From the NCBI GenBank assembly GCA_035559535.1, contig DATMBG010000025.1:1-64000 (forward strand): DNA of 64,000 bases, in the 5' to 3' direction. The translations under genes were made by a program, and so were the position numbers. The notes below the pieces were generated by a model, which did not search any database, was not told where the DNA came from, and worked only from the letters and a program-made list of their open reading frames with translations. Positions 304 through 19,158 of the stretch are shown in pieces (the stretch's first letter is position 1; each line of letters begins with the position of its first letter). The DNA comes from Candidatus Limnocylindrales bacterium (lineage in GTDB: Bacteria; Moduliflexota; Moduliflexia; Moduliflexales; JAUQPW01).

Positions 304-385
304 TAAAACTAATGTTTAAGACAGAGGTTCTAAGTTTGACGTTCTAACGGCTTCACGTTTTAACGAGGACTTAGAGCTTTGAGTT

Positions 386-1438
386 ATGGACTCCTACGCG
401 TATCTTTTTACTTCGGGTAACGGGGAATATTCCCAAGGCAGTGTGGGGACTAAAGAGGAAGCCGAATTCGATGAGGATCTGTTGGATGCCTATTCCCATG
501 CTGTGATCAAGGTAGCCGAGAAACTAAGCCCGGTGGTTGTGAATATCGATGTGACAGTGGAGCGAAAAGGGCGAACCCAGCAAGGTTATCTGGTACCTTT
601 TCAGGCCAGGGGAAGCGGATCCGGGATCATCCTGACTCCAGATGGCTTTATTTTAACCAACAGCCATGTGATTCATGAGGCGAAGAAAATTGAAGTAACG
701 TTGAATGATGGCCGCAAGTATGTGGCCCGGGTCATTGGAGAAGATCCTCAAACGGATCTGGCCGTTATACGCATCGATGATGCTTTCGGTCTTCCCATGG
801 CCGAGTTAGGAGATTCTAAAAAGCTGAAGGTAGGGCAGTTGGTCATTGCTATCGGAAACCCCTATGGTTTTCAGTGTACCGTTACGGCAGGGGTGATTAG
901 TGCTTTAGGACGCTCTTTAAGAACCCAAAGTGGGCGACTTATTGAAGATATCATCCAGACCGATGCCGCCCTCAATCCTGGGAGTTCTGGGGGGGCATTG
1001 GTAGATTCCAGGGGTCGGGTCATCGGGGTTAATACCGCCGTTATCATGCCTGCTCAGGGAATTTGCTTTGCCATTCCCATCAATACGGCTAAACATGTGG
1101 CGGCCTTACTTATTACCTCAGGAAAGGTGACCCGAGGTTATCTGGGTATTGCAGGGCAATTACGACCTTTACATCGGAGCTGGATACGGACTTTTCATTT
1201 GCCCAACGAAACGGGGGTTCTGGTCCTGTCTGTAAATCCAGGAAGCCCCGCCGAACAGGCCGGACTCCGAGAGGGGGATATTATTATCGCTTTAGGAGAT
1301 ATGCCTGTGAGTGGAGTAGATGATATTCACCGTTTCCTGACCGAACATCCAGTCCGGGTGGCCTATCCGATTACTGTTCTCCGGAATCTGGAAAAATTAA
1401 CCCTTCAGGTTATTCCCATCGAATATGACGGGAAGTAG
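386..1438 (+). CDS. HtrA-like trypsin-family serine protease with PDZ domain, no signal peptide
   Basis: This is a 350-residue protease of the S1C/HtrA family. The trypsin-like fold spans about residues 40-235, with a visible catalytic triad of His94 (TNSHVIHE), Asp124 (PQTDLAVIRI) and Ser201 (NPGSSGGAL). A single PDZ domain covers about 250-345 (GVLVLSVNPGSPAEQAGL). The usual GNSGG motif is GSSGG here. The N-terminus is acidic and polar and has no hydrophobic signal or anchor, so it may act in the cytoplasm. The alternative is that the true start lies elsewhere, but no upstream in-frame signal peptide was seen. A second, membrane-anchored HtrA lies at 42453. Family known: quality-control or regulatory proteolysis. 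Target unknown. Confidence 0.9.
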   Translation: MDSYAYLFTSGNGEYSQGSVGTKEEAEFDEDLLDAYSHAVIKVAEKLSPVVVNIDVTVERKGRTQQGYLVPFQARGSGSGIILTPDGFILTNSHVIHEAKKIEVTLNDGRKYVARVIGEDPQTDLAVIRIDDAFGLPMAELGDSKKLKVGQLVIAIGNPYGFQCTVTAGVISALGRSLRTQSGRLIEDIIQTDAALNPGSSGGALVDSRGRVIGVNTAVIMPAQGICFAIPINTAKHVAALLITSGKVTRGYLGIAGQLRPLHRSWIRTFHLPNETGVLVLSVNPGSPAEQAGLREGDIIIALGDMPVSGVDDIHRFLTEHPVRVAYPITVLRNLEKLTLQVIPIEYDGK

Positions 1439-1480
1439 AAGAAGTTCTTAAATCGGGGCGGATCAGATCTTGAGGGAAGG

Positions 1481-2941
1481 CTAACTCGGCAGGATTTGCC
1501 GATAGAGGAATGCGCGGGCCCAGGCAATCTCTTTGGCACTGAATTCACCCAGTGCTAAAAAAGCCAGGGGAATAAGGAATCCAATAATGGGTAATTTTAT
1601 TAAAAGCAACAGATTGGGAACAGGCCAGAGAACAGCCAGCAGGTAAGCAAGTCCGCAAACCAGGATGCTTCGCCACAGGGTTCCTGCCGGGGGGAGGATC
1701 TGCCAGATATAATAGACGGTTAATACGGCCATCCCCGCGCCCAGGCTGGCCACCAGGGCTGTAACCAGGGAGGCCCCCAGAGCCCCTAACCTGGGAATTA
1801 ACACCAGATGACCCACGATGGCTAAAAGCGGCAGAGGTCCGGTCAGTGCAAAGGCCCAGGTAGATCTATTAACAGAAATCAGAATGGAGGTGGCCACCGA
1901 TACCAGGACTAAAATCATGGAACCGAAGTTTAACAGCGCCAAGAGAGGTGCCGCAGGCAAAAAGGTAGGCCCAAAAACCAACTGGACAATATCCGGAGCG
2001 GCCCCGGCAACCATGGCCGTAAAGGGTAATAGCCCAATAACCAAACGCATGGCATCACGACCCAACTCCTTAGCCTGATAACTGTTTCCGGTACGTAGCA
2101 GACGGCTTAAGGTGGAGAGGAGAAGGGGAGAAAAGGATAGGGCAAAAGTACCTGGAATTACAGCTAAATTTTGTGCTACATTGTAGATCCCTGTTTGTTC
2201 TGTAGTAGCTCCCAATCCTTTCAAAATAAAGAGATCTAGCCGGTTATAGAGACTTACACTCAGGGCCGATAGGAACAACGGAATGGCATTTTCCCAAAAT
2301 TTCCAGGTGGGAAGGTTAGAACGGCCAAACAGGGAAGGTCGAAGATAGAAGTAGCCGATAAGGAATTCCACCAGGGAGGCTCCCATACTGCCTAGAATGG
2401 CACCGGGTATGGAAAAGCCTAACTCGACCAGGAGAACGATCAACAAGAGTCTCGCGATATAACGACCTGCACTGATGAGGGCCCGTTGCCTGAAGCTACC
2501 CAGACCGATCAGGATATTTCGGTAGGCGTAGGTAATACTGAAGAGCGGAATATCTAAGGCAAACAACCGGATATAAGCAGCAAGTATGGGTTCATGAAGG
2601 AGTCGGGCAATGAAAGTACTTAGAAGCCATAACAGGGCAACTATTCCTGTACTTACCAAAAGGTGAAGCCGAATCAGGCTGGCTCCAACAGGTCGCCAAT
2701 CCTCGGCTTCACTGATATACTTAATGGTGGGACGTGAAAAAAGCGAGGCAATGCCCCATTCAATCCAGGCAATTAAGGTTGCAACCAGGGCATACAAACC
2801 ATACCCCGAGGACCCCAGCCGATGCGTGAGGAAAACGGTGGTTATCAGGCCCGTTGGTAAAAATAGAGCTTCTGCCAGGAAAACCCGTAGGGTTCCATCA
2901 AATATATGACGACGGCTTACTTGGGAAGACGAGGAATCCAT
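1481..2941 (-). CDS. Polysaccharide flippase (Wzx/MATE-like oligosaccharide exporter)
   Basis: The 486-residue protein is almost entirely hydrophobic, with about 12-14 predicted membrane helices. Its N-terminus carries the early RRHIFDGTLRVFLAEALFLP segment, typical of polysaccharide biosynthesis proteins of the MOP flippase superfamily. Known members flip lipid-linked oligosaccharides across the inner membrane. It lies about 100 bp downstream of the CapK/methyltransferase/dehydrogenase operon on the same strand and near several glycosyltransferases. This suggests it exports the glycan assembled by this region. No clear ribosome site precedes the ATG. Substrate cannot be read from sequence. 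Confidence 0.85.
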   Translation of the reverse strand: MDSSSSQVSRRHIFDGTLRVFLAEALFLPTGLITTVFLTHRLGSSGYGLYALVATLIAWIEWGIASLFSRPTIKYISEAEDWRPVGASLIRLHLLVSTGIVALLWLLSTFIARLLHEPILAAYIRLFALDIPLFSITYAYRNILIGLGSFRQRALISAGRYIARLLLIVLLVELGFSIPGAILGSMGASLVEFLIGYFYLRPSLFGRSNLPTWKFWENAIPLFLSALSVSLYNRLDLFILKGLGATTEQTGIYNVAQNLAVIPGTFALSFSPLLLSTLSRLLRTGNSYQAKELGRDAMRLVIGLLPFTAMVAGAAPDIVQLVFGPTFLPAAPLLALLNFGSMILVLVSVATSILISVNRSTWAFALTGPLPLLAIVGHLVLIPRLGALGASLVTALVASLGAGMAVLTVYYIWQILPPAGTLWRSILVCGLAYLLAVLWPVPNLLLLIKLPIIGFLIPLAFLALGEFSAKEIAWARAFLYRQILPS

Positions 2942-3039
2942 TTAATGGCGAACAACCGATAGTAAGGAATAAGATACCCTGGATAATTAATTAGCTTATA
3001 GACGGTGGATTGTCAACAACCAACTTGTATCTTCCTATT

Positions 3040-4356
3040 TTATTGGAGCTTAGCCGCAAAGTAGCGGGAGGCTAATCCCTTTACCCAAAATCCGGGTATG
3101 AGGCCCCGCCGGTATAGGACCAGACCTCTTTGGAAGAGTCCTCCCAGGAAGCCGGATTGTTCAGTTTGTCGTTTGATTTTTAAGAATCGTTGCATAGCCT
3201 CTTGTTGGGCGATGAGGCTGATCAACGCCCCTCGTTTCTCGGCACTCTGGATCAACGCAGCGATCCGGGGGGCCAGTTTTTCTTCAATTAACTGCTGTAT
3301 GGTCTTCGAATCCAATCCCGCAAAGGTCATCGTTCCTCCTAATACCCCCCCGGAGTTAGTGACAAAATCAGGCAGGCAAAGAATTCCTCGATTTTGCAAG
3401 ATTTGTTCGGCTTCCAATGTAACCGGATAATTGGCCCCTGGACTGATGATACCAGCCTGGACCTGTTTGGCATTTCCTGTATGGATACTTTCACTGGTGG
3501 CACAAGGGCAGAGAAGATCTACCGGGAGGGTCAGCAAGTCCTCCTTGGGTATAAGTTCGGCTTCTTTATAGACATGTACCAGTTCACTTCCGACCTGTTG
3601 GGACAACCTCAAGAGTTCTTTAACGGGTAGACCTTGAGGATGGTAAAGGGCTCCTTGTGAGGTGGAGATGGCCACCATACGGGCCTCTCGTTCTACCAGA
3701 CCCTGGGCAACGGCTGCCCCGACCTTTCCAAAACCCTGAAGGGCAACCCGAAGTCCGGCCAATTTAAGTTTCCTATGTTGGACGGCAACCTGAGCTCCTG
3801 TAATGACTGTCAGCCCGGTGTAAAATCCGGCCAGAAGACGAGAGGGTTCTCTCCGACTTCGCTGGACTCCTACAAAGGTCAACATATCCTCGATTTCAGA
3901 ATTACCGGTGCCGAGATCATGGGCCGGTTGATAACATCCACTTTGTAAGAGGGGGGCCAGGGTAACTGCAAATCGTCGTAGCAGAGCCTGCCGTTGTTGG
4001 GGAGGAGCCTCCGGATCCCCAATAATCCCTGCTTTTGCCCCTCCTCCCGGAAGACCTAAGAACCCAAACTTGAGGGTCATTCGACGGGCTAATATCCTGA
4101 GTTCAGCGAGGGAAACATCGGGAGCTATTCGGATTCCCCCATGGGAACGCCCATTGATCATAGTATCAACCACAAGCCAACCCAGGGACATCCCTGTCTC
4201 GTCAGTTGCTTCACAACTAAAGGAATCGTATCCTAAAGATGGAACCCCTGATAAAGCCAGATCCTCATAGGAGGATCCGGTGAAGCTCCGGGTTGTATTG
4301 CTTCCTGGGGTAGTCTGCCAGGACTCGTCGAGTTTATTTTCTGTTTGATAAGTCAT
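3040..4356 (-). CDS. Glu/Leu/Phe/Val-type amino acid dehydrogenase
   Basis: This is a 438-residue member of the glutamate/leucine/phenylalanine/valine dehydrogenase family, which oxidatively deaminates amino acids or runs in reverse using NAD(P). The substrate lysines are Lys96 (RRMTLKFG) and Lys108 (PGGGAKAGI). The catalytic Asp147 is in PAHDLGTG. A Rossmann motif GFGKVG lies at 208-213, and the TNSGG segment is present, so it looks active. The first 40 residues are atypical. Its ATG overlaps the stop of the methyltransferase by 4 bases, with a good Shine-Dalgarno site (AAGGAG), making it the last gene of a coupled four-gene operon. That context suggests a dedicated biosynthetic role rather than bulk nitrogen assimilation. 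Substrate specificity is unknown. Confidence 0.88.
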   Translation of the reverse strand: MTYQTENKLDESWQTTPGSNTTRSFTGSSYEDLALSGVPSLGYDSFSCEATDETGMSLGWLVVDTMINGRSHGGIRIAPDVSLAELRILARRMTLKFGFLGLPGGGAKAGIIGDPEAPPQQRQALLRRFAVTLAPLLQSGCYQPAHDLGTGNSEIEDMLTFVGVQRSRREPSRLLAGFYTGLTVITGAQVAVQHRKLKLAGLRVALQGFGKVGAAVAQGLVEREARMVAISTSQGALYHPQGLPVKELLRLSQQVGSELVHVYKEAELIPKEDLLTLPVDLLCPCATSESIHTGNAKQVQAGIISPGANYPVTLEAEQILQNRGILCLPDFVTNSGGVLGGTMTFAGLDSKTIQQLIEEKLAPRIAALIQSAEKRGALISLIAQQEAMQRFLKIKRQTEQSGFLGGLFQRGLVLYRRGLIPGFWVKGLASRYFAAKLQ

Positions 4357-5246
4357 GTTTGCACTCCTTCCTCGGCATAAGATCTCGAGGTACTTTGCAT
4401 TGCCTCGTCCAATAGAAAAGTTCGTTTCTCAGCAAGACGTGCTTGTTTCTCGGCACGAAGAGCGAGATAGTAACCGGTTTGATACCGGATCGACCAACGT
4501 TCCAAACTCTCAAAGCTATCCAATATACGCTCCATGGGGGCTTCTAAAACTTTCCAGCCCAGGCGCTCCAGGAGGGTCAGTAACCAAATGGCCGGGGCCC
4601 GGGGGACATGGGAAACTGCCGTGACATGGGTTACAATTAATCCTAAGGCTTCGAGTTGGTGACGGGCTTCTATGAGGTTGTACGTCGCACCTACATAGTA
4701 GGGTACAAGGTGCAAACGATTCAACCAGGTAAAAGGCAGGTGATTACGCAACCAGACAATGGGATTGTGGGGATTGTCCAGGGTGATTATTAAAATTCCT
4801 CCGGGAGCCAGTATACGGACTAACTCGGCCAGGCTTTTAGCTATATCTGCCTTATCCGGAAAGTGGTCCAGTGAGGATCCGGCCAGGATGTACTTTACGG
4901 TTTCTGATTTTAAAGGAATCTGACGTAAATCTCCCACCACGAAAAGGGATCCGCCATCTTTTCCTAAAAGTCGATGCCGGGCAGCCTGAACGATCGCCGA
5001 AGAGTGATCGAGACCAACGCTACCCGGTCCCAAATCGGGCAAGAGGTGATGATCACTCACCGCCTCTTCAAACAGATCTGTTTTCAGACCACGCCCCGGG
5101 TTACCAATCGGTAACCAATCTTGAAGGAGGCGTTTATAAACCCGCCGCATATAAGCCCGCCATATTTCTATGGGGGAACTACAACGGATTTCTTCCAGGA
5201 CTTCGTCCCAGTAAATTTGTGTGGTATAATGGTTTTGTTGAATCAT
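4353..5246 (-). CDS. Class I SAM-dependent methyltransferase
   Basis: The 297-residue protein has a Methyltransf_11-like core at about 60-180. SAM-binding and following strands are visible as VGLDHS, FVVGDLRQIPLKSETV and YILAGSSLDHF, then LVRILAPGGILIITLDNP. The glycine-rich motif I is degenerate. It overlaps the next gene (dehydrogenase) by 4 bases and its own start overlaps the stop of the CapK-like gene by 4 bases. The start has the site GAAGGTG. The target atom and substrate are unknown. By context it would modify the molecule handled by the two adenylate-forming proteins or a glycan intermediate. Family assignment is firm, role is inference. Confidence 0.82.
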   Translation of the reverse strand: MIQQNHYTTQIYWDEVLEEIRCSSPIEIWRAYMRRVYKRLLQDWLPIGNPGRGLKTDLFEEAVSDHHLLPDLGPGSVGLDHSSAIVQAARHRLLGKDGGSLFVVGDLRQIPLKSETVKYILAGSSLDHFPDKADIAKSLAELVRILAPGGILIITLDNPHNPIVWLRNHLPFTWLNRLHLVPYYVGATYNLIEARHQLEALGLIVTHVTAVSHVPRAPAIWLLTLLERLGWKVLEAPMERILDSFESLERWSIRYQTGYYLALRAEKQARLAEKRTFLLDEAMQSTSRSYAEEGVQT

Positions 5247-6598
5247 TTTTTCACCTTCGCCCCTTCCGGATACGCCATCACCCTCAAAAATTTACCCTGG
5301 GGGGTTAGAGGAATATGTTCGACAAACTCAACCGTCACCTGGGTATCCGTACCCAAGACAGAGCGAGCCCGTTCCAACAACTGATTTTGTAATGCCTTTC
5401 GATCTGTGCTGGAGAAAGGTACGATCTGCCATTGGATTTGACCGGGTGCAGGTTGAATAACTCGAGATTGTAGGGTGGATTTTAATTCATGTTTGAATAA
5501 AGCTTCTAGCATCAGAAAGGAGAGCTCTCGACCATTGGGAAGACGGATGACGTCGGTACAACGCCCGCTCAACTGTTCCAATAGAGGTAAGGATCTACCA
5601 CATGGACAGGGTTTCTGTGCCAGGATACCTTGATCGCCCTGGCGGTAATTAAGCAGGACCATTCCGAGATTGCGTAGATTGGAAATAACCACCTCACCTG
5701 GCTCACCTGGGGGGACGGTCCTTCCCTTTTCATCAACCAATCGTACCGCACAGAGATCTATATTTAGATGAAAACCCTGGCGATATTCGCACTGGAATCC
5801 AATTCGTCCGGCTTCTGCAGATAGGTAAGCCGAATAGACCAGACAACCAAACGTTTTTTCAATCAGATCCCGTCCGCCGGGAGAAAGGAGATCCCCCCCA
5901 TACATCCAAACCCGAGGTAGAGCAATACGCCATTGGCGGTCGGATAGAAATCGAAAAAACTGATCCGCATAAGACCCATAGGAGAATACTACCTGGGGCC
6001 GAAAGGTGTTAATCTTCTCAACCACAGCTTCAAAGGGTTCCTCTATGGAAATAAATTGACGATGAGCCAGGCCTCGGGGTGCTAGAGTTTGTGAGCTCCA
6101 GAAAGCGCGGATCTTTAAGGTCAATGAGGTAGGGGGAAAGATATAAAGTTGACGTTGTCCATAACTCTGTCCTATCAGATGGTTTAATATACCACGATCT
6201 CTTTCGGCATAGGCAAGCTCACGTAAAATAGAAGCGTTATCCCAATAAATGGTACGCTGAGCCCGGGACTGGGATCCACTGCTATACCAAACCTGTCGAG
6301 ATCCTTCGTCATAGCACGTCGAAGTAAACCGGTCCAGATTGTTTCGTAGGATGAAACTATCGATCAGAGGAAGTTGGGTCAGGTCATCGACGGTTTGGAA
6401 ATCCTCTGGGCGTAGCCCTCGTTCGTCCATAGCCCTACGATAAAACGGCACCGTACGATAGGCATGTCGGATTATCGAGTGTATACGATGACACTGAAGC
6501 CGTTCAATCCATTCCACAGGCCAGAAAGGCAACCTGCGCTCGATACAAGAAAGGGTACCTACATATCCGCTATTAAGAAATCGCTTCATCCAACTCAT
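5243..6598 (-). CDS. CapK/PaaK-like adenylate-forming protein (copy 2)
   Basis: This 451-residue protein belongs to the phenylacetate-CoA ligase/CapK branch of adenylate-forming enzymes. Visible blocks are the N-terminal HAYRTVPFYRRAMDERGL, the A3-like YSSGSQSRAQRTIY, a central YGGDLLSPGGRDLIEKTFG, then YSAYLSAEAGRIGFQCE, GEVVISNL and LLNYRQGD, the cysteine pair CPCGRSLP, and a C-terminal domain ending PLTPQGKF. The ATP-loop motif departs from canonical SSGTTG. Family members activate carboxylates to acyl-AMP, and CapK homologues occur in capsule clusters with unproven chemistry. It overlaps its paralogue at 6573 by 26 bases. The start has AAGGAG eleven bases upstream. Confidence 0.82.
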   Translation of the reverse strand: MSWMKRFLNSGYVGTLSCIERRLPFWPVEWIERLQCHRIHSIIRHAYRTVPFYRRAMDERGLRPEDFQTVDDLTQLPLIDSFILRNNLDRFTSTCYDEGSRQVWYSSGSQSRAQRTIYWDNASILRELAYAERDRGILNHLIGQSYGQRQLYIFPPTSLTLKIRAFWSSQTLAPRGLAHRQFISIEEPFEAVVEKINTFRPQVVFSYGSYADQFFRFLSDRQWRIALPRVWMYGGDLLSPGGRDLIEKTFGCLVYSAYLSAEAGRIGFQCEYRQGFHLNIDLCAVRLVDEKGRTVPPGEPGEVVISNLRNLGMVLLNYRQGDQGILAQKPCPCGRSLPLLEQLSGRCTDVIRLPNGRELSFLMLEALFKHELKSTLQSRVIQPAPGQIQWQIVPFSSTDRKALQNQLLERARSVLGTDTQVTVEFVEHIPLTPQGKFLRVMAYPEGAKVKK

Positions 6599-7973
6599 AG
6601 GGTTGGTAACTCCTTATTCCATCAAAAATTGTTTCTCCTTGAGGTTTCTGGCGTAACGAAAGGACAGTACGAACTTTACCTCCAGGTGTTCGTGGAATTT
6701 GATCGGTAAAGGTCAGGTTGATGGTGATATCTTCCCCGAGGATACGGTTTAGGTTATGGGTAATGCGTTGAGCCATGGCCTGTCTATTACAGGTTCCAGA
6801 AGCTACCAGTGCAATGCGGAAATGGGTACCGCTCTCTTGAACGATCTGGTATTGCCAGAGTTCCTCTTCAACCAGGAAAACGTCCTTTACCCGCATGGGA
6901 TGTATAAGTCGACCGGAAGTTAATTGAATCCAATCGTCGGAGCGAGCCTGGGGGAGTGAGAGCCTGGGTAATGAACGCCCACAAGGACATGGGCCGGGTA
7001 ATATACAGGCGATATCACCCAGTCGGTAATTCAGGAGTACCGTCGCCCGATTGACCAGGTTTGAGAGGATCACATCCCCGCTTTCACCATCCGGTAGGGT
7101 TTCACCCTTCTCGTTGACAATACGAACCGGATATAGATCGATATTGAGATGCAAACCCATATTGTAGAAGCACTCAAAGCCAATCTTGAATGCTTCGGTA
7201 GCCTGATAGGTGCTGAGTAAAGGAAGACCAAAGGTTTCGGTAATCAAACGCCGAACAGGGTTAGAGAGACCATCTGAGCTGTAGGTGACGATTTTAGGAC
7301 GATGAAAAGGGACTCCTGTGGTATAAAGATACGGGAAGAGAACTTCAAGATAAGATCCGTAGCTGTGAAGTACGTCTGGTTTAAATTCGTTGATTAAGGG
7401 AACATTTTTTTCCGGTGGATCTAGCGGCAGATACTGTCGTTGAATGCGGATGCCTTTAGGGAGAAAACCGTGTTTTTGACAAAATTTATGTACCTCTTTG
7501 GCTACCCCGGAGGACGTGGCAATGCTGGTCTCGCGGTATCCCAGCGAACGCCCCACCAGTTTCACAATCATCGATCGCTCACGTTCACCGTGTGCAGCGT
7601 TCTGAAAAAGTGAAGTCGCATCATGGTAAACGGTCCCATGGGTATGGGTACTCCTTCCGGTTCGCAACTTCAGGTAATAATCCCGGGGTTGGGCAGTAGA
7701 GACCAGATCCTCGGGGTTCTGTTGTAAATGCTTACGTTCCAGTATCGGCAGTCGTGAGAGATCCTCAGCGGTTCGAAAATCGCCTGGGCTTAAGCCCAGG
7801 TTATCCATCACCCTTCGATAATAGGGTACCCTGTGATAAGCATAGGCTATCATGCTTTGTACGCGCCGTGCCTGGGCACGTTGGATAACCTCCAAGGGTT
7901 CAAAGGGGAACCGGGTCTGGCCTCGCAGATGATAAGCCAGATAAATACTCCATTTTAAACGACTCCACCACAT
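6573..7973 (-). CDS. CapK/PaaK-like adenylate-forming protein (copy 1)
   Basis: The 466-residue product is a paralogue of the next gene, sharing the family blocks: AYHRVPYYRRVMDNLGL near 45, YQATEAFKIGFECFYN, GDVILSNL, LLNYRLGDI, CPCGRSLP and the C-terminal PRTPGGKVRTV. Its A3 position reads LRTGRSTHTHGTVYHD, so the Ser/Thr/Gly nucleotide loop is poorly conserved. It heads the operon, with a strong AGGAGG site before ATG and about 1.1 kb of upstream noncoding DNA. It probably arose with copy 2 by tandem duplication. It may activate a carboxylate, act on a carrier-bound substrate, or form a heteromer with copy 2. None of these is shown by sequence. Confidence 0.8.
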   Translation of the reverse strand: MWWSRLKWSIYLAYHLRGQTRFPFEPLEVIQRAQARRVQSMIAYAYHRVPYYRRVMDNLGLSPGDFRTAEDLSRLPILERKHLQQNPEDLVSTAQPRDYYLKLRTGRSTHTHGTVYHDATSLFQNAAHGERERSMIVKLVGRSLGYRETSIATSSGVAKEVHKFCQKHGFLPKGIRIQRQYLPLDPPEKNVPLINEFKPDVLHSYGSYLEVLFPYLYTTGVPFHRPKIVTYSSDGLSNPVRRLITETFGLPLLSTYQATEAFKIGFECFYNMGLHLNIDLYPVRIVNEKGETLPDGESGDVILSNLVNRATVLLNYRLGDIACILPGPCPCGRSLPRLSLPQARSDDWIQLTSGRLIHPMRVKDVFLVEEELWQYQIVQESGTHFRIALVASGTCNRQAMAQRITHNLNRILGEDITINLTFTDQIPRTPGGKVRTVLSLRQKPQGETIFDGIRSYQPYELDEAIS

Positions 7974-8050
7974 GGGATTTCCTCCTGGATCCTGTCTCCT
8001 CTTCCAGAAGATTTTCTACGGCATATCCCAAAAACTGATTCCATAAGTAT

Positions 8051-8172
8051 TTTGTTTACTTAGTCTTGCTTAACTTTTAAACGGCCCCTCACCCCCGGCC
8101 CCTCTCCTATAGCGTGGGAGAGGGGCGTTGGGAAGTGAAAGCCGTACTATGAGACTGAAATTAAGTAAACAG
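8051..8172. repeat. MITE-like element A, copy 1
   Basis: This unit of about 120 bp begins TTTGTTTACTTAGTCTTGCT and ends TTAAGTAAACAG, so GTTTACTTA/TAAGTAAAC form terminal inverted repeats. Inside is a G/C-rich hairpin, CCCCTCTCC facing GGAGAGGGG around 8099-8125. It contains no coding potential. A second, closely similar copy lies 380 bp downstream at 8433. Size and structure suggest a nonautonomous mobile or RNA-hairpin repeat. No flanking target duplication was resolved by eye. Confidence 0.6.
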
Positions 8173-8432
8173 TGTAGTAAGTCGGTTTTGATGTTTTTGA
8201 ATAATCCTTCGTCTTCTCCGAAGAGGAGCCGGTACACTTTGCCCGGCCTTGGACCCTAAATAAGATAGAAGTGTTTTTTTACTATCTAAAAGTACTAATA
8301 GATAATTTTTAAGCAATATATATACCTAAATAAGTATATCTATACGTTTATAGGTATAATTTAACTATAAATTGAATTAAAATTATTTCAATAGGTAATA
8401 TGAGGAAAATAAAAAAATTTAAAGGAGAGGAC
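8173..8432. other. AT-rich spacer between the two element A copies
   Basis: About 8270-8420 is markedly AT-rich, with repeated TATATA/AAATTA words and no open frame. It lies upstream of the CapK operon (which starts at 7973 on the minus strand), so it may contain that operon's promoter. No convincing -35/-10 pair was chosen. Confidence 0.3.
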
Positions 8433-8540
8433 TTTGTTTACTTAGTTTTGCTTAACCTTTAAATGGTCCTCACCCTCTGGCCCCTCTCCCACGCCACAGG
8501 AGAGGAGAGTTGGGGCATGGAGTCAAAAGTAAGTAAACAG
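8433..8540. repeat. MITE-like element A, copy 2
   Basis: It starts TTTGTTTACTTAGTTTTGCT, continues through a CCCCTCTCC...GGAGAGGAG hairpin, and ends AAGTAAGTAAACAG. It is the same family and orientation as copy 1 at 8051, with several substitutions and a shorter loop. The two copies therefore diverged after duplication. It is noncoding. The 8541-8880 stretch that follows has no recognisable gene. Confidence 0.6.
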
Positions 8541-8883
8541 GGTAGAAGTACCTCATCGAACCATGTCGGCAGGAGGAAGGGAAAGGGATTTTTAGATCTG
8601 ATCTCTGTTTTTTACCTGGACAAAGAGTAAAAACATATAAATTAAATATATCTCTTACTGGGATTCTTTAATCTGGGCCGGTTCCGGATCGAAGGGGATC
8701 GGGGATAAAAAGGGTAAATATTTACGGGCCGTGAACTTATTTAGATTGAATAGAGAAGAACCGACGAGAGTGAAGAAGGAAGCCGGTTCAAGGGATCCTG
8801 TTGGGGAAGAGCTTTTATTTTGAGGGAGGTCCTCTACGCATCACGTTAAGGATTAGATGTGGAGTCCAGACACCCCCCTGGTC

Positions 8884-9034
8884 CCTATAGGCACCAGGTT
8901 AAGGCGCCTCCATCCGGTCCCTCCTCCGTTTCACAGAGGAGGGGACTTCACTTCAAAGTTCCTTCCCCTGCAAAGCGGGGGAAGGTTAGGAAGCGGGTGC
9001 CCCCATGGATCTTACTCTTATCCTGGTGCCTAGA
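8884..9034. repeat. Hairpin-rich element with TAGGCACCAGG inverted ends
   Basis: TAGGCACCAGGTTAAG near 8888 faces CTTATCCTGGTGCCTA ending near 9032, giving an imperfect terminal inverted repeat around about 110 bp. Two internal hairpins are visible: CCCTCCTCC with GGAGGGG, and CCTTCCCC with GGGGGAAGG. A 60-codon open frame in this interval is a by-product of the repeats. The element sits directly before the GT2 gene at 9118. Confidence 0.5.
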
Positions 9035-9117
9035 GAGATGATCTCAGTTTTTGGATGCGTAGGTTGGCAGGGTTAGTTCTTACCTCTCCGATTCCATTTC
9101 AAGGGAAGGAGGTATAG

Positions 9118-10068
9118 ATGAACAGATTGGAAAAAGAAAATACAACTCCGGATATTTCCATTTGTATTGCCACCTTTCGTCGACCGCAGGGTCTGACCCG
9201 ACTACTCGATAGTTTACAGCGACTCTCGGGTACAAAGGATTTCACCTTGGAAATCATCGTGATCGATAACGATGCTGCAGAGACGGCCCGGCCTGTTGTG
9301 GAGGAACTGAAGAGTAGGTATACCTGCCTGAGATACGGGGTTGAGCCAAGACAGAATATCTCCCACGCCCGGAACCGGGCTGTAGAGCAGGCCCGAGGGA
9401 CCTGGATTGCTTTTATTGATGATGATGAAGTAGCCGGAGAAAACTGGCTTGCGGAATATTGGCAGATGATCCGTAAAATCCCCGGAGACGGTTATTTCGG
9501 TCCTGTACTACCCCGGCTGGAGAAAGCTGGTCCTTCCTGGCTAGACCCGGAGGTTTTTTTTAGCAGACCCCGCTATCCCAGCGGTACCAGGTTAAAGTTT
9601 TATCAAACCCGTACGGGTAATGCTTTCATCCGCCGTTCCCTTTTTAATCGACATAAGTTTGATCCCTTTTACGGTCTTACGGGGGGTGGAGACACCGAAC
9701 TTTTCTCACGGATGATGGAGAGTGGGGCAAAATTTTTTTGGTGTGATACAGCCCAGGTGTTTGAATATATTCCTTCACATCGTTTAACCTTCAAATGGCT
9801 CCTGCAGCGTGCCTTTCGCAAGGGTGTGGCTTATACTTACCTGCAGAGACGACGATCCCCACGCTACTCCCGACAGATGATTGAGCTCCTGAAGGCCCTG
9901 GCAGGTATTTTTGTTTTTGCCTCTATTCTGCCGCTGGAAGTATTTCGCGGCCGTACTGCTATCCTCAAGGGGCTCTTACGCCTTTGTGTTCAAGTCGGGC
10001 ATCTATGGGCCTTCTTGAACCTGACCTACGAAGAATACAAAGTCGAAGGGATGATACCCGGAAATTAA
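9118..10068 (+). CDS. Family 2 glycosyltransferase
   Basis: This is a 316-residue GT-A fold glycosyltransferase. The N-terminal beta strand and nucleotide site (PDISICIATFRRPQGLTRLL) are clear. VIDND follows, then the ARNRAVEQARG helix and the metal/nucleotide-binding FIDDDEVAGENWL near residue 100. A hydrophobic stretch near 265-300 (LAGIFVFASILPLEVF) suggests a membrane association tail. It starts at ATG with an excellent GGAGG site. It stands alone on the plus strand between glycan genes on the minus strand. It probably transfers a sugar from a nucleotide donor during surface glycan assembly. Donor and acceptor are unknown. Confidence 0.88.
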   Translation: MNRLEKENTTPDISICIATFRRPQGLTRLLDSLQRLSGTKDFTLEIIVIDNDAAETARPVVEELKSRYTCLRYGVEPRQNISHARNRAVEQARGTWIAFIDDDEVAGENWLAEYWQMIRKIPGDGYFGPVLPRLEKAGPSWLDPEVFFSRPRYPSGTRLKFYQTRTGNAFIRRSLFNRHKFDPFYGLTGGGDTELFSRMMESGAKFFWCDTAQVFEYIPSHRLTFKWLLQRAFRKGVAYTYLQRRRSPRYSRQMIELLKALAGIFVFASILPLEVFRGRTAILKGLLRLCVQVGHLWAFLNLTYEEYKVEGMIPGN

Positions 10069-10203
10069 AAAAATTCCCACCCTCTCCCGAATTGGCCGTC
10101 CGAAAAATCTACTCAACCTGGGGAGATATCCGGGCTGGGAACCTTTACCAGAGACGACCTGGGCCTCTAAGTGGATCATCCCGGAGATCTTCTATTTTTT
10201 AGC

Positions 10204-11133
10204 CTACCCTCCTTCCGTTGTCATCTTCCGTTTCTTATGCCAATTCCTTCTTAATTTTCTAAGTCGTAAAATCATCCCCCTTTGCTTAAAATTCTGGATA
10301 AGGTTTCTACTGCCCAAGACCCAGTATCCAAAACCAACAACCAGGAGACCGAGAAGGACCATGGCTTTCAACCACGAATAGTCTCGATTTCGTACGGTTC
10401 TCCAAAAGACTAGAAACCTCTCCCTCTGGGTCAAGGGTCTGGCAGCTACAATCTTACGGTATTTTTGACTGCTCTTTCCGTAAATAAAAACTTTCTGGAA
10501 ATGTTTACCGACCCCATCGATTTCCAGGTGCCGTACCCGAATTTGGGGAGAATAATGAACCACTTCGCAAGAATACTTGGCCATACATTGGTGAATGAAA
10601 ATGGTATCAGATCCTCGGATCCTTTCGACAAATGGCCCTATTTCGGCAAATAGTTCCTTTCGAATGGCCATATTTCCTGCATAGCCGTAATAGAGTTCTT
10701 TTATTTTACTGGTGAAGACATAGTGGTCTTTTTCATTCTCATAGTCGGCCAGCAGGGAGAGTAAAAAAGAGTCTCTGGCAAATCGGAGACTTCCTATGAC
10801 GATGCCAACCTCGGGATGGGCCATGGCCTCCTTTATTCCCTGTAACCAGTCCTTGAAGGGGACACAATCGGAGTCGGTAAAGGCAATAATCTTACCCTTT
10901 GCCTCCCGGACCCCTCGGTTACGGGCTGCGTAAGCCCCTCGCCTTCCTTCCGAGATCAGCCTGACCCGGGGATATCGTTTCACAATCCTGACTGAGGCGT
11001 CGGTGGAATTATTATCAACCATGACAATCTCATACCGTTCCCGGGGATAGTCCTGGGAAAGTAATCCTTCAATACACTCCATAAGATATCGCTCCGAATT
11101 GTGGAAGGGTACAACAATGGAAACGTCTATCAT
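10204..11133 (-). CDS. Family 2 glycosyltransferase with C-terminal membrane segment
   Basis: The 309-residue protein has the GT2 signature VSIVVPFHNSERYLMECI, the donor-binding VDNNSTD, AYAARNRGVREAKG and the metal-binding FTDSDCVP near residue 90. A later GSDTIF segment corresponds to the acceptor/ED region. One hydrophobic helix lies near 265-285 (MVLLGLLVVGFGYWVLG), and the C-terminus is rich in Arg and Lys. The ATG is preceded by AGAGGA at proper spacing. It converges with the GT2 gene at 9118. A role in surface glycan assembly is inferred from neighbours. Confidence 0.88.
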   Translation of the reverse strand: MIDVSIVVPFHNSERYLMECIEGLLSQDYPRERYEIVMVDNNSTDASVRIVKRYPRVRLISEGRRGAYAARNRGVREAKGKIIAFTDSDCVPFKDWLQGIKEAMAHPEVGIVIGSLRFARDSFLLSLLADYENEKDHYVFTSKIKELYYGYAGNMAIRKELFAEIGPFVERIRGSDTIFIHQCMAKYSCEVVHYSPQIRVRHLEIDGVGKHFQKVFIYGKSSQKYRKIVAARPLTQRERFLVFWRTVRNRDYSWLKAMVLLGLLVVGFGYWVLGSRNLIQNFKQRGMILRLRKLRRNWHKKRKMTTEGG

Positions 11134-11549
11134 AACTATCCTCTTGTGGATATCGGAGAAAAAATTCTCAAACCCTGGCCTTTACACCCACCCGGTAAAT
11201 GGATTTCAGAATTTTCTACTCCTCAAGTTTTTCCCGGATGCCCTCCTCCAGCTTTTACCTGGTATTGGCTTTAACCAGAATCACAGGGTTTTATTTTTGA
11301 CCCAAAACCTATAAGAATAGTTTTTATAGATCTAAATTAACTTTATCTAACTAATAAAAATCTAAACTAGTCCAAGAATATTAGTTACCTTTACAAGGTA
11401 TAAACTTACATAATTTAATTAAAGATATTTACAATTCTTTTTTATTAAGAAGTAGGTTTTCTTACAGATTCAGGTTTTATAATCCTATTTTTTCTCGTCT
11501 TCTCCTCCCAACAGATCGGAGGCTCTTCCCCGTCGGACTAAAGCAGGCC
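11134..11549. other. AT-rich intergenic region
   Basis: These roughly 415 bp separate two minus-strand genes. The part from 11330 to 11480 is very AT-rich and likely contains the promoter of the GT2 gene at 10204-11133. No RNA gene, repeat family or conserved open frame was recognised. Confidence 0.4.
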
Positions 11550-13187
11550 CTAAGGGGGATGGAATAAATCATCAAACTGAATTTTAATGGAGTCCCCCAT
11601 AAGGGGAATATTCATCGTGAGGATTCTTCCCCTGACCGGAGGAACATAGTCTTTGTACTCATAAATGGCCAGCGTAACCCCCTGGAGCGTAGAACGGTTA
11701 GAAGAGATGGGGATTCTTTTACGTAACACAAATTTATCCGTTTTAACTTCTTCCCTTAGCCATTCTAAGGGGGAGGATTTAAACGGTTTATCCTCCATGA
11801 CCACATACCCTACGCCAAAATTCCGAAGGATCTCATAGATCTGATCTCGACGGGTAATCCGTTCTTCAACAATGTAATCCATCCGGGAAGTGACCAGCAT
11901 CTTATCGGCCCGAAGCACAATCAAATCTCGATAGGGGTCGTGTTTTCTGGTGAAAAATACAAAGTAGCCGGAATCTATATCGGCGCTGAATAAAATGCTT
12001 TCTCCCTTTCTATTCTCGGTTACATACTGGGCTGCTGATTCGTACCCTTCGGCATATTCAGGTTGGGATAGAAAAGCAAGGTATGTTTGATAGGCCACAG
12101 TGAAAATAAGAAGGGAGGAAAGAAGAATTTTCCAGGAACGATAGGGAAAAAGATGAACGGAGGTGGCCGCAAAAAGACAAAAAGCCGGAATCCAATAAAT
12201 GCTATAGCGAGCCTCCCTGGCCCCGGTACAGGTAATTTCTACGTAAAAGATCCCGATCCACAGTAAAAATAAGATGGCCCGTTTATCCCTTCGGTATAAG
12301 GATCCGCCCAGAGAAACCAGACTAAGGATCAAAACCGGTAAAGTCAGTTGCTCTTGCCAGAGAGCCCGGGGATAATACAGGATAGGGGATAATCCGACTC
12401 TGGAAGATAGAGACTTCTGGGCTACCCAGGAGATATTGGTCTGGGAAAATTTAAGGGTTAAGGGAATAAGGGGAAGAAGAAGCAAAAAAGTAAGAATGAC
12501 GGCCAGAATGACTTCTTTTGCCAGGAGCTTCCGAACCCCCCGGGTCAAAAGGAGATAAAGCAAGAAGATGGGAAGCATGAAGATGGCCAGATGTTTGGCG
12601 TAGACGCTTAATGAGAAGCTTATCGCAAAGGCATAGGCATATTTGCTTTTATCTGTTTGAACAAATCTATAAAAGAAATACGCGGTGACCAGGATAAGAG
12701 CTAGAGTGGGAATCTCAGATAGAACAACTCTAGAGAAGCCGACGATAAAAGGAGTGGTTGCAAATAAGGCAGACGAAAACAAAGCAATCTTTTCATCGTA
12801 GAGGGTTTTTATTAAGAAAAACCAGGCGATAACCGCCCCCAACATAAAGAAGACAATGGCCCACCTTGCGGAAAAGACGGAAACTCCTAAAACTGTATAA
12901 AAAGGAACTTCGGCCACACTTAAGAGGAGGGGATGATGTCCCAGGGAAAGGGCCGGGTACCTTGCATAGTATTGGTAGGTATACGCCATGGCATGGGTAA
13001 GGGGGAGATCCTTTAGGAGATCATAAAAGTAAACCCCGTTCATGAGATACCGGGGCATATCTCCTTGGAGAGAGACAATCTCCTCGTGGGTTATCCCTTT
13101 TGTTGCCAGCAGAAGCACCAGACTACCCAGGAGAAGGAGATATAGAATTGATTGAACCGAACGGTGATAAGAATTCCCTAATTCCAT
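11550..13187 (-). CDS. GT39-like (ArnT/PMT family) membrane glycosyltransferase
   Basis: The 545-residue protein has about 10-12 hydrophobic helices over residues 15-370 and a soluble C-terminal part of roughly 150 residues. The first periplasmic loop contains the acidic and His-rich signature region (GDMPRYLMNG, YARYPALSLGHHPLLL) typical of dolichyl/undecaprenyl-phosphate sugar transferases of the GT39/PMT superfamily. Such enzymes use polyprenyl-phosphate sugars on the outer face of the inner membrane. The start has a modest AGGAC site. It neighbours GT2 genes and the FAD oxidoreductase, consistent with a glycan or glycoprotein modification cluster. Confidence 0.8.
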   Translation of the reverse strand: MELGNSYHRSVQSILYLLLLGSLVLLLATKGITHEEIVSLQGDMPRYLMNGVYFYDLLKDLPLTHAMAYTYQYYARYPALSLGHHPLLLSVAEVPFYTVLGVSVFSARWAIVFFMLGAVIAWFFLIKTLYDEKIALFSSALFATTPFIVGFSRVVLSEIPTLALILVTAYFFYRFVQTDKSKYAYAFAISFSLSVYAKHLAIFMLPIFLLYLLLTRGVRKLLAKEVILAVILTFLLLLPLIPLTLKFSQTNISWVAQKSLSSRVGLSPILYYPRALWQEQLTLPVLILSLVSLGGSLYRRDKRAILFLLWIGIFYVEITCTGAREARYSIYWIPAFCLFAATSVHLFPYRSWKILLSSLLIFTVAYQTYLAFLSQPEYAEGYESAAQYVTENRKGESILFSADIDSGYFVFFTRKHDPYRDLIVLRADKMLVTSRMDYIVEERITRRDQIYEILRNFGVGYVVMEDKPFKSSPLEWLREEVKTDKFVLRKRIPISSNRSTLQGVTLAIYEYKDYVPPVRGRILTMNIPLMGDSIKIQFDDLFHPP

Positions 13188-13372
13188 AGAAAAGTCCTAC
13201 CCAACTTCCTTATATTATTTATAAAATATTACCCCGGTAATTGTAAAGGTAGCCCCATGTAGGGTCCCTCCTTGCTGGGCAACCTCACCGCTATGGGGGA
13301 CAGTCCTGAGCCCCTACCAGACTGCATCCGGGCCAGGACCTCCGCAGAGGAATCTTGACGATATCCTTGTAC

Positions 13373-13392
13373 GGGCGCAAGGCTTTGCGCCC
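13373..13392. repeat. Short GGGCGCAA/TTGCGCCC hairpin
   Basis: The eight-base arms GGGCGCAA and TTGCGCCC are separated by GGCT, with CGTAC and TTACG extending the pairing imperfectly. This is a compact intergenic palindrome with no T-run. It lies in the 320-bp gap between the FAD oxidoreductase and the GT39-like gene. Confidence 0.45.
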
Positions 13393-13420
13393 TTACGGTC
13401 TCTTCTCATAGGGACTTTCA

Positions 13421-13500
13421 GGGATAGATTTTTTCTAACCTGACCCCCTTCCCTCGCAGGGAAGGGGAGTCGGAGGGGTCAGATTCCAAAAATCTACCCC
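13421..13500. repeat. 80-bp inverted-repeat element abutting the oxidoreductase stop
   Basis: GGGATAGATTTTTTCTAACC (13421) faces GATTCCAAAAATCTACCCC (ending 13500). An inner stem CCCCTTCCCT/AGGGAAGGGG lies between them. The element ends six bases from the stop codon of the FAD oxidoreductase and may serve as its 3' hairpin. The segment CTAACCTGACCCC resembles CTAACCTAACCCC near 35920, so it belongs to a dispersed family. Confidence 0.5.
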
Positions 13501-13506
13501 CAAAGG

Positions 13507-15381
13507 TTACCCGGGGTTCCAAGGTTTGGTTTGATCTTCTTCTTGAACCTGCCGTCGTATCAGAGAAGCATAGGCCCCCATCATCCAGTTTCTGAGCCAG
13601 GCACCTCCATATCCCAGTCCGAACCCCACCAATCCCATCTCCACAAGACCCGTGAAGGCACCCTCCCAGGTTACCTTAAATCCCGGTAGATATTGACCCA
13701 GCAAGGATAAATTTGGCCTAATCAGAGGACCTCCCTTCAGAAGAAGTATCCCCACGGCCAGAAAGGTTCCTATTCCTCCAACCGAGCCTAAGGCAATTCC
13801 CATGGCGAGAGGATCTAGCTTTGCGAAGGCAGCCTCGATGATTTTGTCCGGGGATAGAGGCTGATCAGTTTCCCTTGGGCCTACACAGGTCGGAATCAGA
13901 CGGTCTCCACCTCCTTTCAAAAAATCTATCTTCTCTGAAAGGATCGACTTCCGGGTCTTGGCTTCCTCTCGGATCTCTTCATGGTACTCCATCTCCGTGT
14001 TTACCGACCAGACATCGTGTTTTTCACCCACAATGTTTTGTGCAGCGTAAATTCCCGTTAGCATAGAGTGATCCTGATTATTATAGCGATGAAGTCCATT
14101 TCGACCGATGGTTTGAAGATTTGAGAAAGTTTCCAGATAGGTTCTCAGGGTTCTCAAATTTTCGTGATAGTTCTGATCATAGACCGGATAGGCTTTTTTC
14201 ATACGAACCACGGTTCCATCTTCTACCTCTCCGGGATCCACCAACCCGATCTGTGTGCACTCTTTAATTCCCAATTCTATGAGCTGATCTTGGGACCAAT
14301 GCCACGGGTCATCCTTATCCCATAGAAAATATTCAAGTCCCAGGGAGGTTCGTGAGGGATCCGGAACCATATCGGGACTCCAGTTCTTGTAATTTTGGAT
14401 TCGCCCCATCCTGACCTCCGGGGAATGAATATAAATCCAATTATCTGGAAAAACGGATTCCCGTCGAACGATAAGTACGACGGTCAGATAATCCCGGTAA
14501 CGAAGGTAATTGGCAGCCCTTAAGACTTCCTCCGGTGGCCTGGGATCCAGGGCCTGGATAAGCTCCCGAAGGGGCATGGTAGAGATAAAATGCTCACCGT
14601 CAAACTCAACCAACTCACCAGAGTCGGTACGACCATACACGCACTCCACCCGTCCCTGGCGGTGTCGTATTTTCTCAACCTTTACGCCCCGAATCGTCCT
14701 GTGACCTTTGGCAGCCAGGAGTTCTTCGCAACGCTCCCACATCATACCGGGTCCGAGCCGGGGATAATTAAAACGCTCGATAAGTGTGGTGATAATTTGT
14801 CCGTCCCGGGTTCGCCCGGAACCCAGCAGGGCGTTCCTTATGGCTTCATACAAAGACAGGTTTTTAATGCGTTGTGAAGCCCAATCTGCAGAAATCTCCG
14901 TACAGGGGATGCCCCAGACCTTCTCGGTATAAGTTTTAAAGAAGATCTGATATAAGCGATAGCCAAACCGATTGGATACCCACTGCTCAAAGGTGGTCTC
15001 TTCTTCACTGGGAAACAGTCTGGCTTTGGTATAGCTTACCCCAACCAGGAAAGCTTCTACGGGCCCTAATCCCGTCAGTGCATTGGCTGCTTTCAAGGGA
15101 TAATCAAAAAAATGCCCTCTATAGTGGATCCGTGAAAGCCGCGGTCGGACCAGGAAGTCTTCAGAAAGGATTTCCCGCCATATTTCATTGATGAGGGGAA
15201 TTTTAGAAAAAAATCGATGCCCTCCAATATCAAACCGATAACCTCGATAGTTAACGGTACGCGAGAGGCCCCCCACTTGCTGATCGGCTTCCAGGATCGT
15301 AGAAGGTACATTGAGTTTGGATAACTCATAGGCTGCAGTTAATCCGGCAGGTCCTGCTCCAATAATGAGGGTATGTGACAT
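13507..15381 (-). CDS. FAD-dependent oxidoreductase (UDP-galactopyranose mutase-like) with membrane tail
   Basis: From the preferred start the protein has 624 residues. IIGAGPAGLTAAYEL at the N-terminus is the FAD dinucleotide motif. GGLSRTVNYRGYRFDIGGHRF follows as in the amine oxidase/UGM/protoporphyrinogen-oxidase-like group, and there is a late RNGLHRYNNQDHSM segment as in that group. The family part ends near residue 490. After it comes an unusual extension with two hydrophobic helices (near 530-545 and 590-605). ATG at 15381 is chosen over an upstream ATG at 15417 because AGGAG lies ten bases before it. It probably acts on a sugar or lipid intermediate of the adjacent glycan genes. Reaction unproven. 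Confidence 0.8.
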   Translation of the reverse strand: MSHTLIIGAGPAGLTAAYELSKLNVPSTILEADQQVGGLSRTVNYRGYRFDIGGHRFFSKIPLINEIWREILSEDFLVRPRLSRIHYRGHFFDYPLKAANALTGLGPVEAFLVGVSYTKARLFPSEEETTFEQWVSNRFGYRLYQIFFKTYTEKVWGIPCTEISADWASQRIKNLSLYEAIRNALLGSGRTRDGQIITTLIERFNYPRLGPGMMWERCEELLAAKGHRTIRGVKVEKIRHRQGRVECVYGRTDSGELVEFDGEHFISTMPLRELIQALDPRPPEEVLRAANYLRYRDYLTVVLIVRRESVFPDNWIYIHSPEVRMGRIQNYKNWSPDMVPDPSRTSLGLEYFLWDKDDPWHWSQDQLIELGIKECTQIGLVDPGEVEDGTVVRMKKAYPVYDQNYHENLRTLRTYLETFSNLQTIGRNGLHRYNNQDHSMLTGIYAAQNIVGEKHDVWSVNTEMEYHEEIREEAKTRKSILSEKIDFLKGGGDRLIPTCVGPRETDQPLSPDKIIEAAFAKLDPLAMGIALGSVGGIGTFLAVGILLLKGGPLIRPNLSLLGQYLPGFKVTWEGAFTGLVEMGLVGFGLGYGGAWLRNWMMGAYASLIRRQVQEEDQTKPWNPG

Positions 15382-15811
15382 ATTTTCTTTTCTCCTAGTT
15401 TTTATCAAGTTTTTCATATTCTACAATTTGTATGCCAGTTATATTTTATGCATTAAAATAGAAAAATATAGCTAATATTATCTAATTAAGATATTTTTAG
15501 TCTGAAAATTTTAAAATAGGTGAAGGGCTCTGTAGGGAGGAAAAAGCGAAGATGGGAGAAAATCCCGTCATATCCTTATCCCCATGGATTCAGAGTTTCT
15601 GACGGTCGGATAGGGAATAATCCAAAATTATTTCGAAAGAAGCAAAAGGAAGGACTTTGAAGGGTTAAACTTCACCCTCTTAGGGGAGGAAGAAAGGAGT
15701 TGTTAGGCCACGAAATCCTCTGAATAAATTCCGGTTATCTCTTCGGAATTCCCCCCAGATGACTTGGGGTTTAACTTCACCCTTTTCCCGAGGGGGATAA
15801 GGGGTACCCTC
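15382..15811. other. Intergenic region with direct repeats
   Basis: An AT-rich part (15420-15510) likely holds the oxidoreductase promoter. Two direct copies of a TTTAACTTCACCCT word, followed by G-rich arms, occur near 15665 and 15770 (TTAAACTTCACCCTCTTAGG and TTTAACTTCACCCTTTTCCC). No gene was recognised. Confidence 0.35.
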
Positions 15812-17473: not shown

Positions 17474-17488
17474 ATTCCTCTTCTTCTC

Positions 17489-19155: not shown

Positions 19156-19158
19156 AGA

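What the first reader, a model, noticed from the sequence alone, without database searches (positions are those of the whole stretch)
3040..7973. Coupled operon of two CapK-like ligases, a methyltransferase and an amino acid dehydrogenase
Four minus-strand genes overlap by 26, 4 and 4 bases and each has its own ribosome site, so they are expressed as one unit. The combination (two paralogous adenylate-forming proteins, a class I methyltransferase and a Glu/Leu/Phe/Val-type dehydrogenase) is not one I know as a described pathway. It sits beside a flippase and glycosyltransferases. One reading is a dedicated acyl- or amino-acid-derived decoration of a surface glycan. Another is a small natural-product route. 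Both are inference.
Basis: partly seen in the sequence, partly recalled or inferred. Interest (0 to 1): 0.6.

Follow-up and report, generated by a model that had tools for sequence, protein, structure and literature searches.

The report
Glycan-locus operon with unusual dehydrogenase
Four overlapping genes in a removable bacterial surface-sugar gene island recur in the same order in another phylum, and two of them (a dehydrogenase that has lost its glutamate-binding residues and a methyltransferase-like protein that has swapped its usual cofactor loop) form a conserved, undescribed core that probably adds an unusual chemical group to the cell-surface sugar.

Summary
In detail: four minus-strand genes overlap by 26, 4 and 4 bases, each with a Shine-Dalgarno-like site. 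They are two CapK/PaaK-like ligases (36% identical), a class I methyltransferase fold and a Glu/Leu/Phe/Val-type dehydrogenase. The arrangement is not accidental. An Anaerolineales genome (Chloroflexota) carries ligase1-ligase2-MT-DH in the same order, with a flippase and glycosyltransferases. In a same-genus genome the flanks are 91-93% identical, but a ~13.5-kb island holding these genes is deleted, leaving a flippase remnant. The interpretation needs revision. Seven dehydrogenase loci were found; all sit beside this MT type and a GT2, but only four have the ligase and two have both. The core is therefore MT-DH-GT2, with ligases as common partners. The seven dehydrogenases form one long-stemmed clade. 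They keep the catalytic Lys/Lys/Asp but lack both glutamate side-chain anchors, so they are unlikely to be glutamate dehydrogenases. All ten MTs lack the SAM-binding GxGxG and carry [LM]KTDL[FY][ED]E instead. Most likely this is a surface-glycan cassette that makes and attaches an amino-acid- or oxo-acid-derived group. The substrate is unknown and the attachment is inference. New variant of a known kind; interest about 0.45.

The parts
6573..7973 (-). L1, CapK/PaaK-like adenylate-forming ligase, first gene of the operon
   Evidence: ORF; PaaK model 3.3e-32; orthologues 56% in L101, 52% in L102, 50% in L052; groups with L101/L052/L102 proteins in tree
7635..7664 (-). L1 P-loop, eroded (RTGRSTHTHG) against RSGGSTGAP/RSGGSSGMP in its orthologues
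5243..6598 (-). L2, second CapK/PaaK-like ligase
   Evidence: ORF; DVU1553-type model 3.3e-34; sister to L052 L2 at 100/100
6260..6283 (-). L2 altered P-loop SSGSQSRA (TTG replaced by Q-S/T), shared with the L052 copy
4353..5246 (-). MT, class I methyltransferase fold without the GxGxG motif
   Evidence: ORF; PF08241 match begins at profile position 21; AlphaFold model pLDDT 78.6 and Foldseek to methyltransferases
5061..5087 (-). MT motif LKTDLFEEA in place of SAM-binding motif I; LKTDL or MKTDL in 10/10 relatives
3040..4356 (-). DH, Glu/Leu/Phe/Val-type dehydrogenase of a separate subfamily
   Evidence: ORF; PF00208/PF02812; monophyletic with 6 other cluster dehydrogenases, 100/100
3916..4143 (-). 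DH active-site residues: H72 (K89 position, changed), K96 (K113), K108 (K125), D147 (D165)
3334..3336 (-). DH G341 at the S380 position of glutamate dehydrogenase (changed)
1481..2941 (-). flippase of the Polysacc_synt (Wzx-like) type, downstream of DH
   Evidence: PF01943 6e-17; flippases also adjacent in L052, L101, L104
9118..10068 (+). GT2 glycosyltransferase of the same island
   Evidence: PF00535
10204..11133 (-). GT2 glycosyltransferase; nearest match in the island to the GT2 that follows DH/MT elsewhere
   Evidence: PF00535; 34% over 171 aa to the L052 GT2; EpsD/MftF-type scores as in the other cluster GT2s
11550..13187 (-). PMT_2-type membrane glycosyltransferase
   Evidence: PF13231
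13507..15417 (-). FAD protein (PRK07208 / UGM-like) with counterparts in the L101, L103, L104, L105, L109 and L155 loci
2145..15680 (.). island absent from same-genus genome G001; flanks joined there with a 7-bp overlap and a 207-bp flippase remnant (window 1938-2144)

Best explanation
The operon is a cassette inside a Wzx/flippase-type surface-glycan locus. It makes and attaches an amino-acid- or oxo-acid-derived group to a sugar of that glycan. The dehydrogenase interconverts a 2-oxo acid and an amino acid other than glutamate, using retained Lys/Lys/Asp chemistry and NAD(P). The MT-fold protein acts on the same intermediate, either as an SAM methyltransferase with a changed loop or as a repurposed enzyme. 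One or two CapK/PaaK-like ligases activate the carboxylate as an adenylate or CoA ester for transfer. GT2 glycosyltransferases and the flippase build and export the unit. Shown: operon structure, conservation of order, glycan context, subfamily identity and residue changes. Inferred: substrates, order of steps, and attachment to the glycan. The glycan-locus membership alone I would put at about 0.8; the full mechanism at the confidence given.
For: Same L1-L2-MT-DH order with 4-base overlaps in L052, flanked by flippase, GT1 and GT2. DH lies with MT and GT2 in 7/7 loci found by scans of 365, 396 and 331 genomes. UGM-like FAD protein in 7 of 10 MT loci, including the window. Loss of the whole island as a block in G001, typical of surface-glycan loci. 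DH keeps K113/K125/D165 equivalents 7/7 while K89 becomes H/C/M/S and S380 becomes G 7/7, against K and S in every glutamate-dehydrogenase-like relative compared. Ligases keep the A5 Glu, A7 Asp and A10 Lys positions in window and L052 copies. Foldseek hits of the MT include the sugar methyltransferases AtmM and RebM.
Against: No acyltransferase gene is evident in the window operon (GNAT-like genes occur only in L101 and L104, and their Pfam match is weak or absent). P-loops of L2 and of window L1 are eroded, so activity is uncertain. MT lacks the GxGxG loop. Three DH loci have no ligase nearby. No glycan structure or literature precedent was found.
Confidence: 0.42

Rival explanations
1. The dehydrogenase and MT act on a sugar acid, not a proteinogenic amino acid: a 2-oxo (ulosonic-type) sugar or nucleotide-sugar intermediate is reductively aminated by DH, and the ligases add a separate acyl group.
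For: DH and MT occur with GT2 and a UGM-like flavoprotein without any ligase in L155, and with GT2 in L156 and L157. The S380-to-Gly change could give room for a bulkier substrate.
Against: No sugar-acid synthase was recognised among the genes examined around the operon; no characterised ELFV enzyme known to me acts on sugar acids.
Confidence: 0.15
2. A small natural-product route (PaaK-like ligases usually activate aryl acids; DH supplies an aromatic oxo acid or amino acid, as ScyB does in scytonemin) that merely sits beside glycan genes.
For: Weak similarity of L1/L2 to BagE/FevW, FlxY and PaaK models and of DH to tryptophan dehydrogenase ScyB (78 bits).
Against: Every related MT/DH locus carries glycosyltransferases and most a flippase or flavoprotein; no PKS, NRPS, oxygenase or acyl carrier was recognised among the genes examined; the island is lost as one block with the glycan genes.
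Confidence: 0.13
3. L2 and the MT-like protein are non-catalytic partners (eroded P-loop, missing SAM loop) that scaffold or regulate an otherwise ordinary glycan assembly; DH is the only active modifying enzyme.
For: SGSQ[ST] P-loop in both L2 copies; no GxGxG in 10/10 MTs.
Against: A replacement motif as strict as KTDL[FY] and the conserved D80/D106 (motif II/III positions) argue for selection on a ligand site; the ligases keep the A5, A7 and A10 residues.
Confidence: 0.15
4. Ordinary glutamate dehydrogenase and unrelated housekeeping genes that happen to be adjacent.
For: Best PDB sequence matches of DH are glutamate dehydrogenases.
Against: Conserved order across phyla, long-stemmed separate clade, both glutamate side-chain anchors lost 7/7, and the genome has three other GDH-family genes elsewhere.
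Confidence: 0.03

Closest known systems
PaaK/CapK-like adenylate-forming ligases (NCBIfam NF045666 DVU1553 family, TIGR02155 PaaK, NF053551 FlxY)
   Same: Overall family, A5/A7/A10 residues, CPCGR segment; often found in tandem in other loci (L041, L106, L113, L116, L119)
   Different: Far below every curated cut-off; eroded P-loops; operon with MT and DH
Glutamate dehydrogenase (ELFV dehydrogenases, PF02812+PF00208)
   Same: Two-domain architecture, catalytic Lys/Lys/Asp
   Different: K89 and S380 equivalents lost; separate clade with stem of 2.66 changes per site; conserved C-terminal segment (LYRRGWIP type) of its own
Tryptophan dehydrogenase ScyB (scytonemin) and Leu/Phe dehydrogenases
   Same: Also ELFV enzymes without the glutamate side-chain anchors
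   Different: Lower similarity than to GDHs (about 97/87/86 bits against 178); not in a scytonemin cluster
Class I SAM methyltransferases (Methyltransf_11/25; AtmM, RebM sugar O-methyltransferases)
   Same: Rossmann fold, motif II Asp and motif III Asp positions
   Different: GxGxG replaced by [LM]KTDL[FY][ED]E in all members
Wzx/flippase-dependent exopolysaccharide or O-antigen loci
   Same: Flippase, GT2s, membrane glycosyltransferase, UGM-like FAD protein, whole-block presence/absence
   Different: No polymerase or initiating glycosyltransferase identified here; MT-DH cassette not described in the papers searched

Membership tests
Glutamate dehydrogenase | catalytic Lys (K125), alpha-carboxylate Lys (K113) and Asp (D165) | tested here: met
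   K108, K96, D147 in the window; 7/7 cluster proteins
Glutamate dehydrogenase | Lys89 and Ser380 that bind the gamma-carboxylate of glutamate | tested here: not met
   H72 and G341; 0/7 cluster proteins keep either, while all glutamate-dehydrogenase-like relatives aligned keep both
Glutamate dehydrogenase | score above curated cut-off of a GDH model | tested here: not met
   152.9 against 620 and 150.3 against 750 bits
ELFV dehydrogenase superfamily | both Pfam domains above cut-off | tested here: met
   PF00208 146.3 bits, PF02812 65.1 bits
Tryptophan dehydrogenase ScyB | equivalog score (600 bits) | tested here: not met
   78.2 bits
PaaK/CapK-like adenylate-forming ligases | A5 Glu, A7 Asp, A8 Arg, A10 Lys | tested here: met
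   YQATEA/YLSAEA, NYRLGD/NYRQGD, ARSDD/GRCTD, GGK/QGK in L1/L2
PaaK/CapK-like adenylate-forming ligases | P-loop of the type [ST][SG]G[ST][ST]G.P | tested here: not met
   RTGRSTHTHG in L1, SSGSQSRAQ in L2; intact in most relatives
PaaK/CapK-like adenylate-forming ligases | ATP-dependent acyl adenylation | not testable with these tools
   needs enzyme assay
Class I SAM methyltransferase | Rossmann methyltransferase fold | tested here: met
   AlphaFold pLDDT 78.6, pTM 0.77; Foldseek top hits methyltransferases, prob 1.00
Class I SAM methyltransferase | glycine-rich motif I (GxGxG) | tested here: not met
   [LM]KTDL[FY][ED]E at that position in 10/10
Class I SAM methyltransferase | SAM binding and methyl transfer | not testable with these tools
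   needs binding or activity assay
Wzx-type surface-glycan locus | flippase plus glycosyltransferases adjacent | tested here: met
   PF01943 at 1481-2941, PF00535 at 9118-10068 and 10204-11133, PMT_2 at 11550-13187
Wzx-type surface-glycan locus | polymerase (Wzy) and initiating transferase | not tested
   none assigned among the genes scanned; not searched for specifically

The most novel reading that the evidence does not exclude
The MT-DH pair founds an undescribed glycan-modifying chemistry. A new dehydrogenase subfamily converts an oxo acid carried by, or destined for, a glycan, together with a methyltransferase-fold enzyme whose SAM loop has been rebuilt into a fixed KTDL[FY][ED]E site for another ligand or reaction. 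CapK ligases plug in as variable acyl-activating modules.
Probability: 0.25. Interest if true: 0.65.

Novelty: new variant of a known kind. Interest (0 to 1): 0.45.

Why it matters
To my knowledge CapK-like ligases are often annotated in polysaccharide loci without an assigned substrate. A cassette that ties one to a dedicated, non-glutamate amino acid dehydrogenase narrows the chemistry to a testable class (amino acid or 2-oxo acid) and gives concrete assays. It also defines a new dehydrogenase subfamily and a methyltransferase-fold family with a rebuilt cofactor loop, both of which automatic annotation would probably label as glutamate dehydrogenase and SAM methyltransferase.

Tried and rejected
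Chance adjacency: rejected by conserved order in L052 and by the 7/7 DH-MT-GT2 association. Plain glutamate dehydrogenase: rejected by residues and tree. G478 dehydrogenase hit (239 bits): turned out an ordinary GDH. Plasmid collection: only <60% identical GDH-family and CapK-like matches, no MT match. Literature searches for CapK/PaaK ligases, amino acid dehydrogenases and glycans gave nothing on point. AlphaFold of DH with two sequences failed (pLDDT 34) and was not used. Promoter and terminator scans were at chance level. The hypergeometric value (1.6e-5) used 11 ligase genomes; my recount is 10, which gives about 1.2e-5. The seeds were chosen through the ligases, so this number is only indicative.
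Full report
What is there. Pfam assigns DH firmly and MT moderately, and hardly assigns the ligases at all. NCBIfam places L1 and L2 near PaaK, DVU1553-type and FlxY ligases, far below cut-offs. L1 and L2 are 36% identical. The best PDB matches are PaaK structures for the ligases and glutamate dehydrogenases for DH.

Is the unit conserved? A scan of named genomes with the L1/L2 alignment returned one close relative of the whole unit: Anaerolineales bacterium UBA2181 (L052). It carries flippase-GT1-L1-L2-MT-DH-GT2 on one strand, at 50, 49, 34 and 49% identity for the four genes, with 4-base overlaps throughout the four-gene block. A scan of 396 Anaerolineae genomes with the ligase profile gave ten genomes with strong matches (at least 349 bits) and a gap below them, the next at 227 bits. 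Their neighbourhoods are: L103 FAD-L1-MT-DH-GT2; L104 FAD-flippase-phosphodiesterase-GNAT-like-MT-DH-(fragments)-L1-GT2; L101 FAD-flippase-L1-GNAT-like-MT-GT2; L105 and L109 FAD-MT-L1-GT2. L102, L106, L107, L108 and L110 have ligase without MT or DH.

What is the core? A dehydrogenase profile searched in the same 396 Anaerolineae found only three strong matches, all in these clusters. The next hit, G478, is an ordinary glutamate dehydrogenase. In 365 genomes sampled across the domain it found the window plus G323, G101 and G239; in 331 Chloroflexota it found only G385. The three new loci have MT and GT2 close to DH but no ligase: L155 FAD-MT-DH-GT2 with a frame-disrupted DH; L156 and L157 MT, GT2, DH. 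So DH sits with this MT and a GT2 in 7 of 7 loci, with a ligase in 4 of 7, and with two ligases in 2 of 7. In the window the GT2s lie 1.1-3 kb upstream of L1, not immediately after DH. A limit: the genome search scores only the best 4-5 first-look candidates per genome, so weaker members may be missed. A second limit: the MT loci were found through ligase or DH, so how often MT occurs alone is unknown.

The island. In G001, of the same genus, window 1-1586 and 15681-21307 match neighbouring stretches of one contig at 91-93% identity. Between them lies only a 207-bp piece of the flippase (window 1938-2144, 90%), and the deletion junction shares 7 bp. The four-gene operon, both GT2s, the PMT-like gene, the FAD gene and most of the flippase are therefore missing as one block, as is common for surface-glycan loci. 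The flippase remnant points to loss in G001. Homologues of the PMT-like and FAD genes survive elsewhere in G001 (67% and 75% nucleotide identity).

The dehydrogenase. In a tree of 40 sequences the seven cluster dehydrogenases are monophyletic at 100/100 on a stem of 2.66 changes per site. Leu/Phe/Trp dehydrogenases were not in that tree, and the frame-disrupted L155 protein was joined from its two frames for it. At the positions known from Clostridium symbiosum GDH (established knowledge), all seven keep K113, K125 and D165, but K89 is H/C/M/S and S380 is G. Every glutamate-dehydrogenase-like sequence compared keeps K89 and S380. These two residues hold the gamma-carboxylate of glutamate, so the substrate is very probably a different amino acid or oxo acid. 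Its identity is unknown.

The methyltransferase. The AlphaFold model (pLDDT 78.6) is a class I methyltransferase fold; top Foldseek hits include AtmM and RebM, which are sugar methyltransferases. Yet the GxGxG loop is missing in all ten members and replaced by LKTDL[FY][ED]E (MKTDL in one). The motif II and III aspartates are kept in the five aligned. Whether SAM is bound is open.

The ligases. Window L2 pairs with L052 L2 at 100/100, and window L1 groups with L101, L052 L1 and L102, so the duplication is older than the split of these loci. The P-loop is SGSQ[ST] in both L2s and eroded in window L1 (RTGRSTHTHG). The A5 Glu, A7 Asp and A10 Lys are kept in all four proteins. The ligases are probably still adenylate-forming, but this needs an assay.

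How it probably works (inference). DH makes or consumes an oxo/amino acid, MT modifies it, the ligase activates its carboxylate, and a transferase couples it to a sugar that GT2 enzymes and the flippase assemble and export. Substrates, the coupling enzyme and the order of steps are not shown. Rivals are a sugar-acid substrate for DH, a separate small-molecule route, and non-catalytic roles for L2 and MT.

Novelty. No curated NCBIfam model covers DH, MT or the ligases at its cut-off, and paper searches found no description of the combination. These searches cover open-access papers only. I file it as a new variant of a known kind: a surface-glycan modification cassette with a new dehydrogenase subfamily and an odd methyltransferase-fold family.

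Noticed in passing
window 8041-8180, 8428-8515, 8834-9038: Non-coding gap upstream of L1 holds dispersed repeats (GGCCCCTCTCC type and a second one) present in dozens of copies at about 75-90% identity in same-genus genome G001.
   Followed up: partly
window 16769-20019: Branched-chain amino acid ABC transporter genes (two ATPases, two permeases) just beyond the island, in a stretch conserved in G001.
   Followed up: no
window 20107-22659: Heparinase II/III-type protein (850 aa), a possible glycan lyase, beyond the island edge.
   Followed up: no
L104 7777-9268: Degenerate GT2 and MT fragments between DH and L1, as if the MT-GT2 part was duplicated and is decaying.
   Followed up: no
L101 10653-11288 and L104 5156-5854: Weakly GNAT-like gene directly before MT in two loci that have ligase, MT and flippase but no L2; it could be the acyltransferase.
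   Followed up: partly
L054, L055, L106: Tandem or triple arrays of CapK-like ligase genes in other bacteria; paralogous CapK arrays recur and are unexplained.
   Followed up: no
L155 9523-10702: The dehydrogenase of G323 is split by a frame disruption, either a pseudogene or an assembly error.
   Followed up: no
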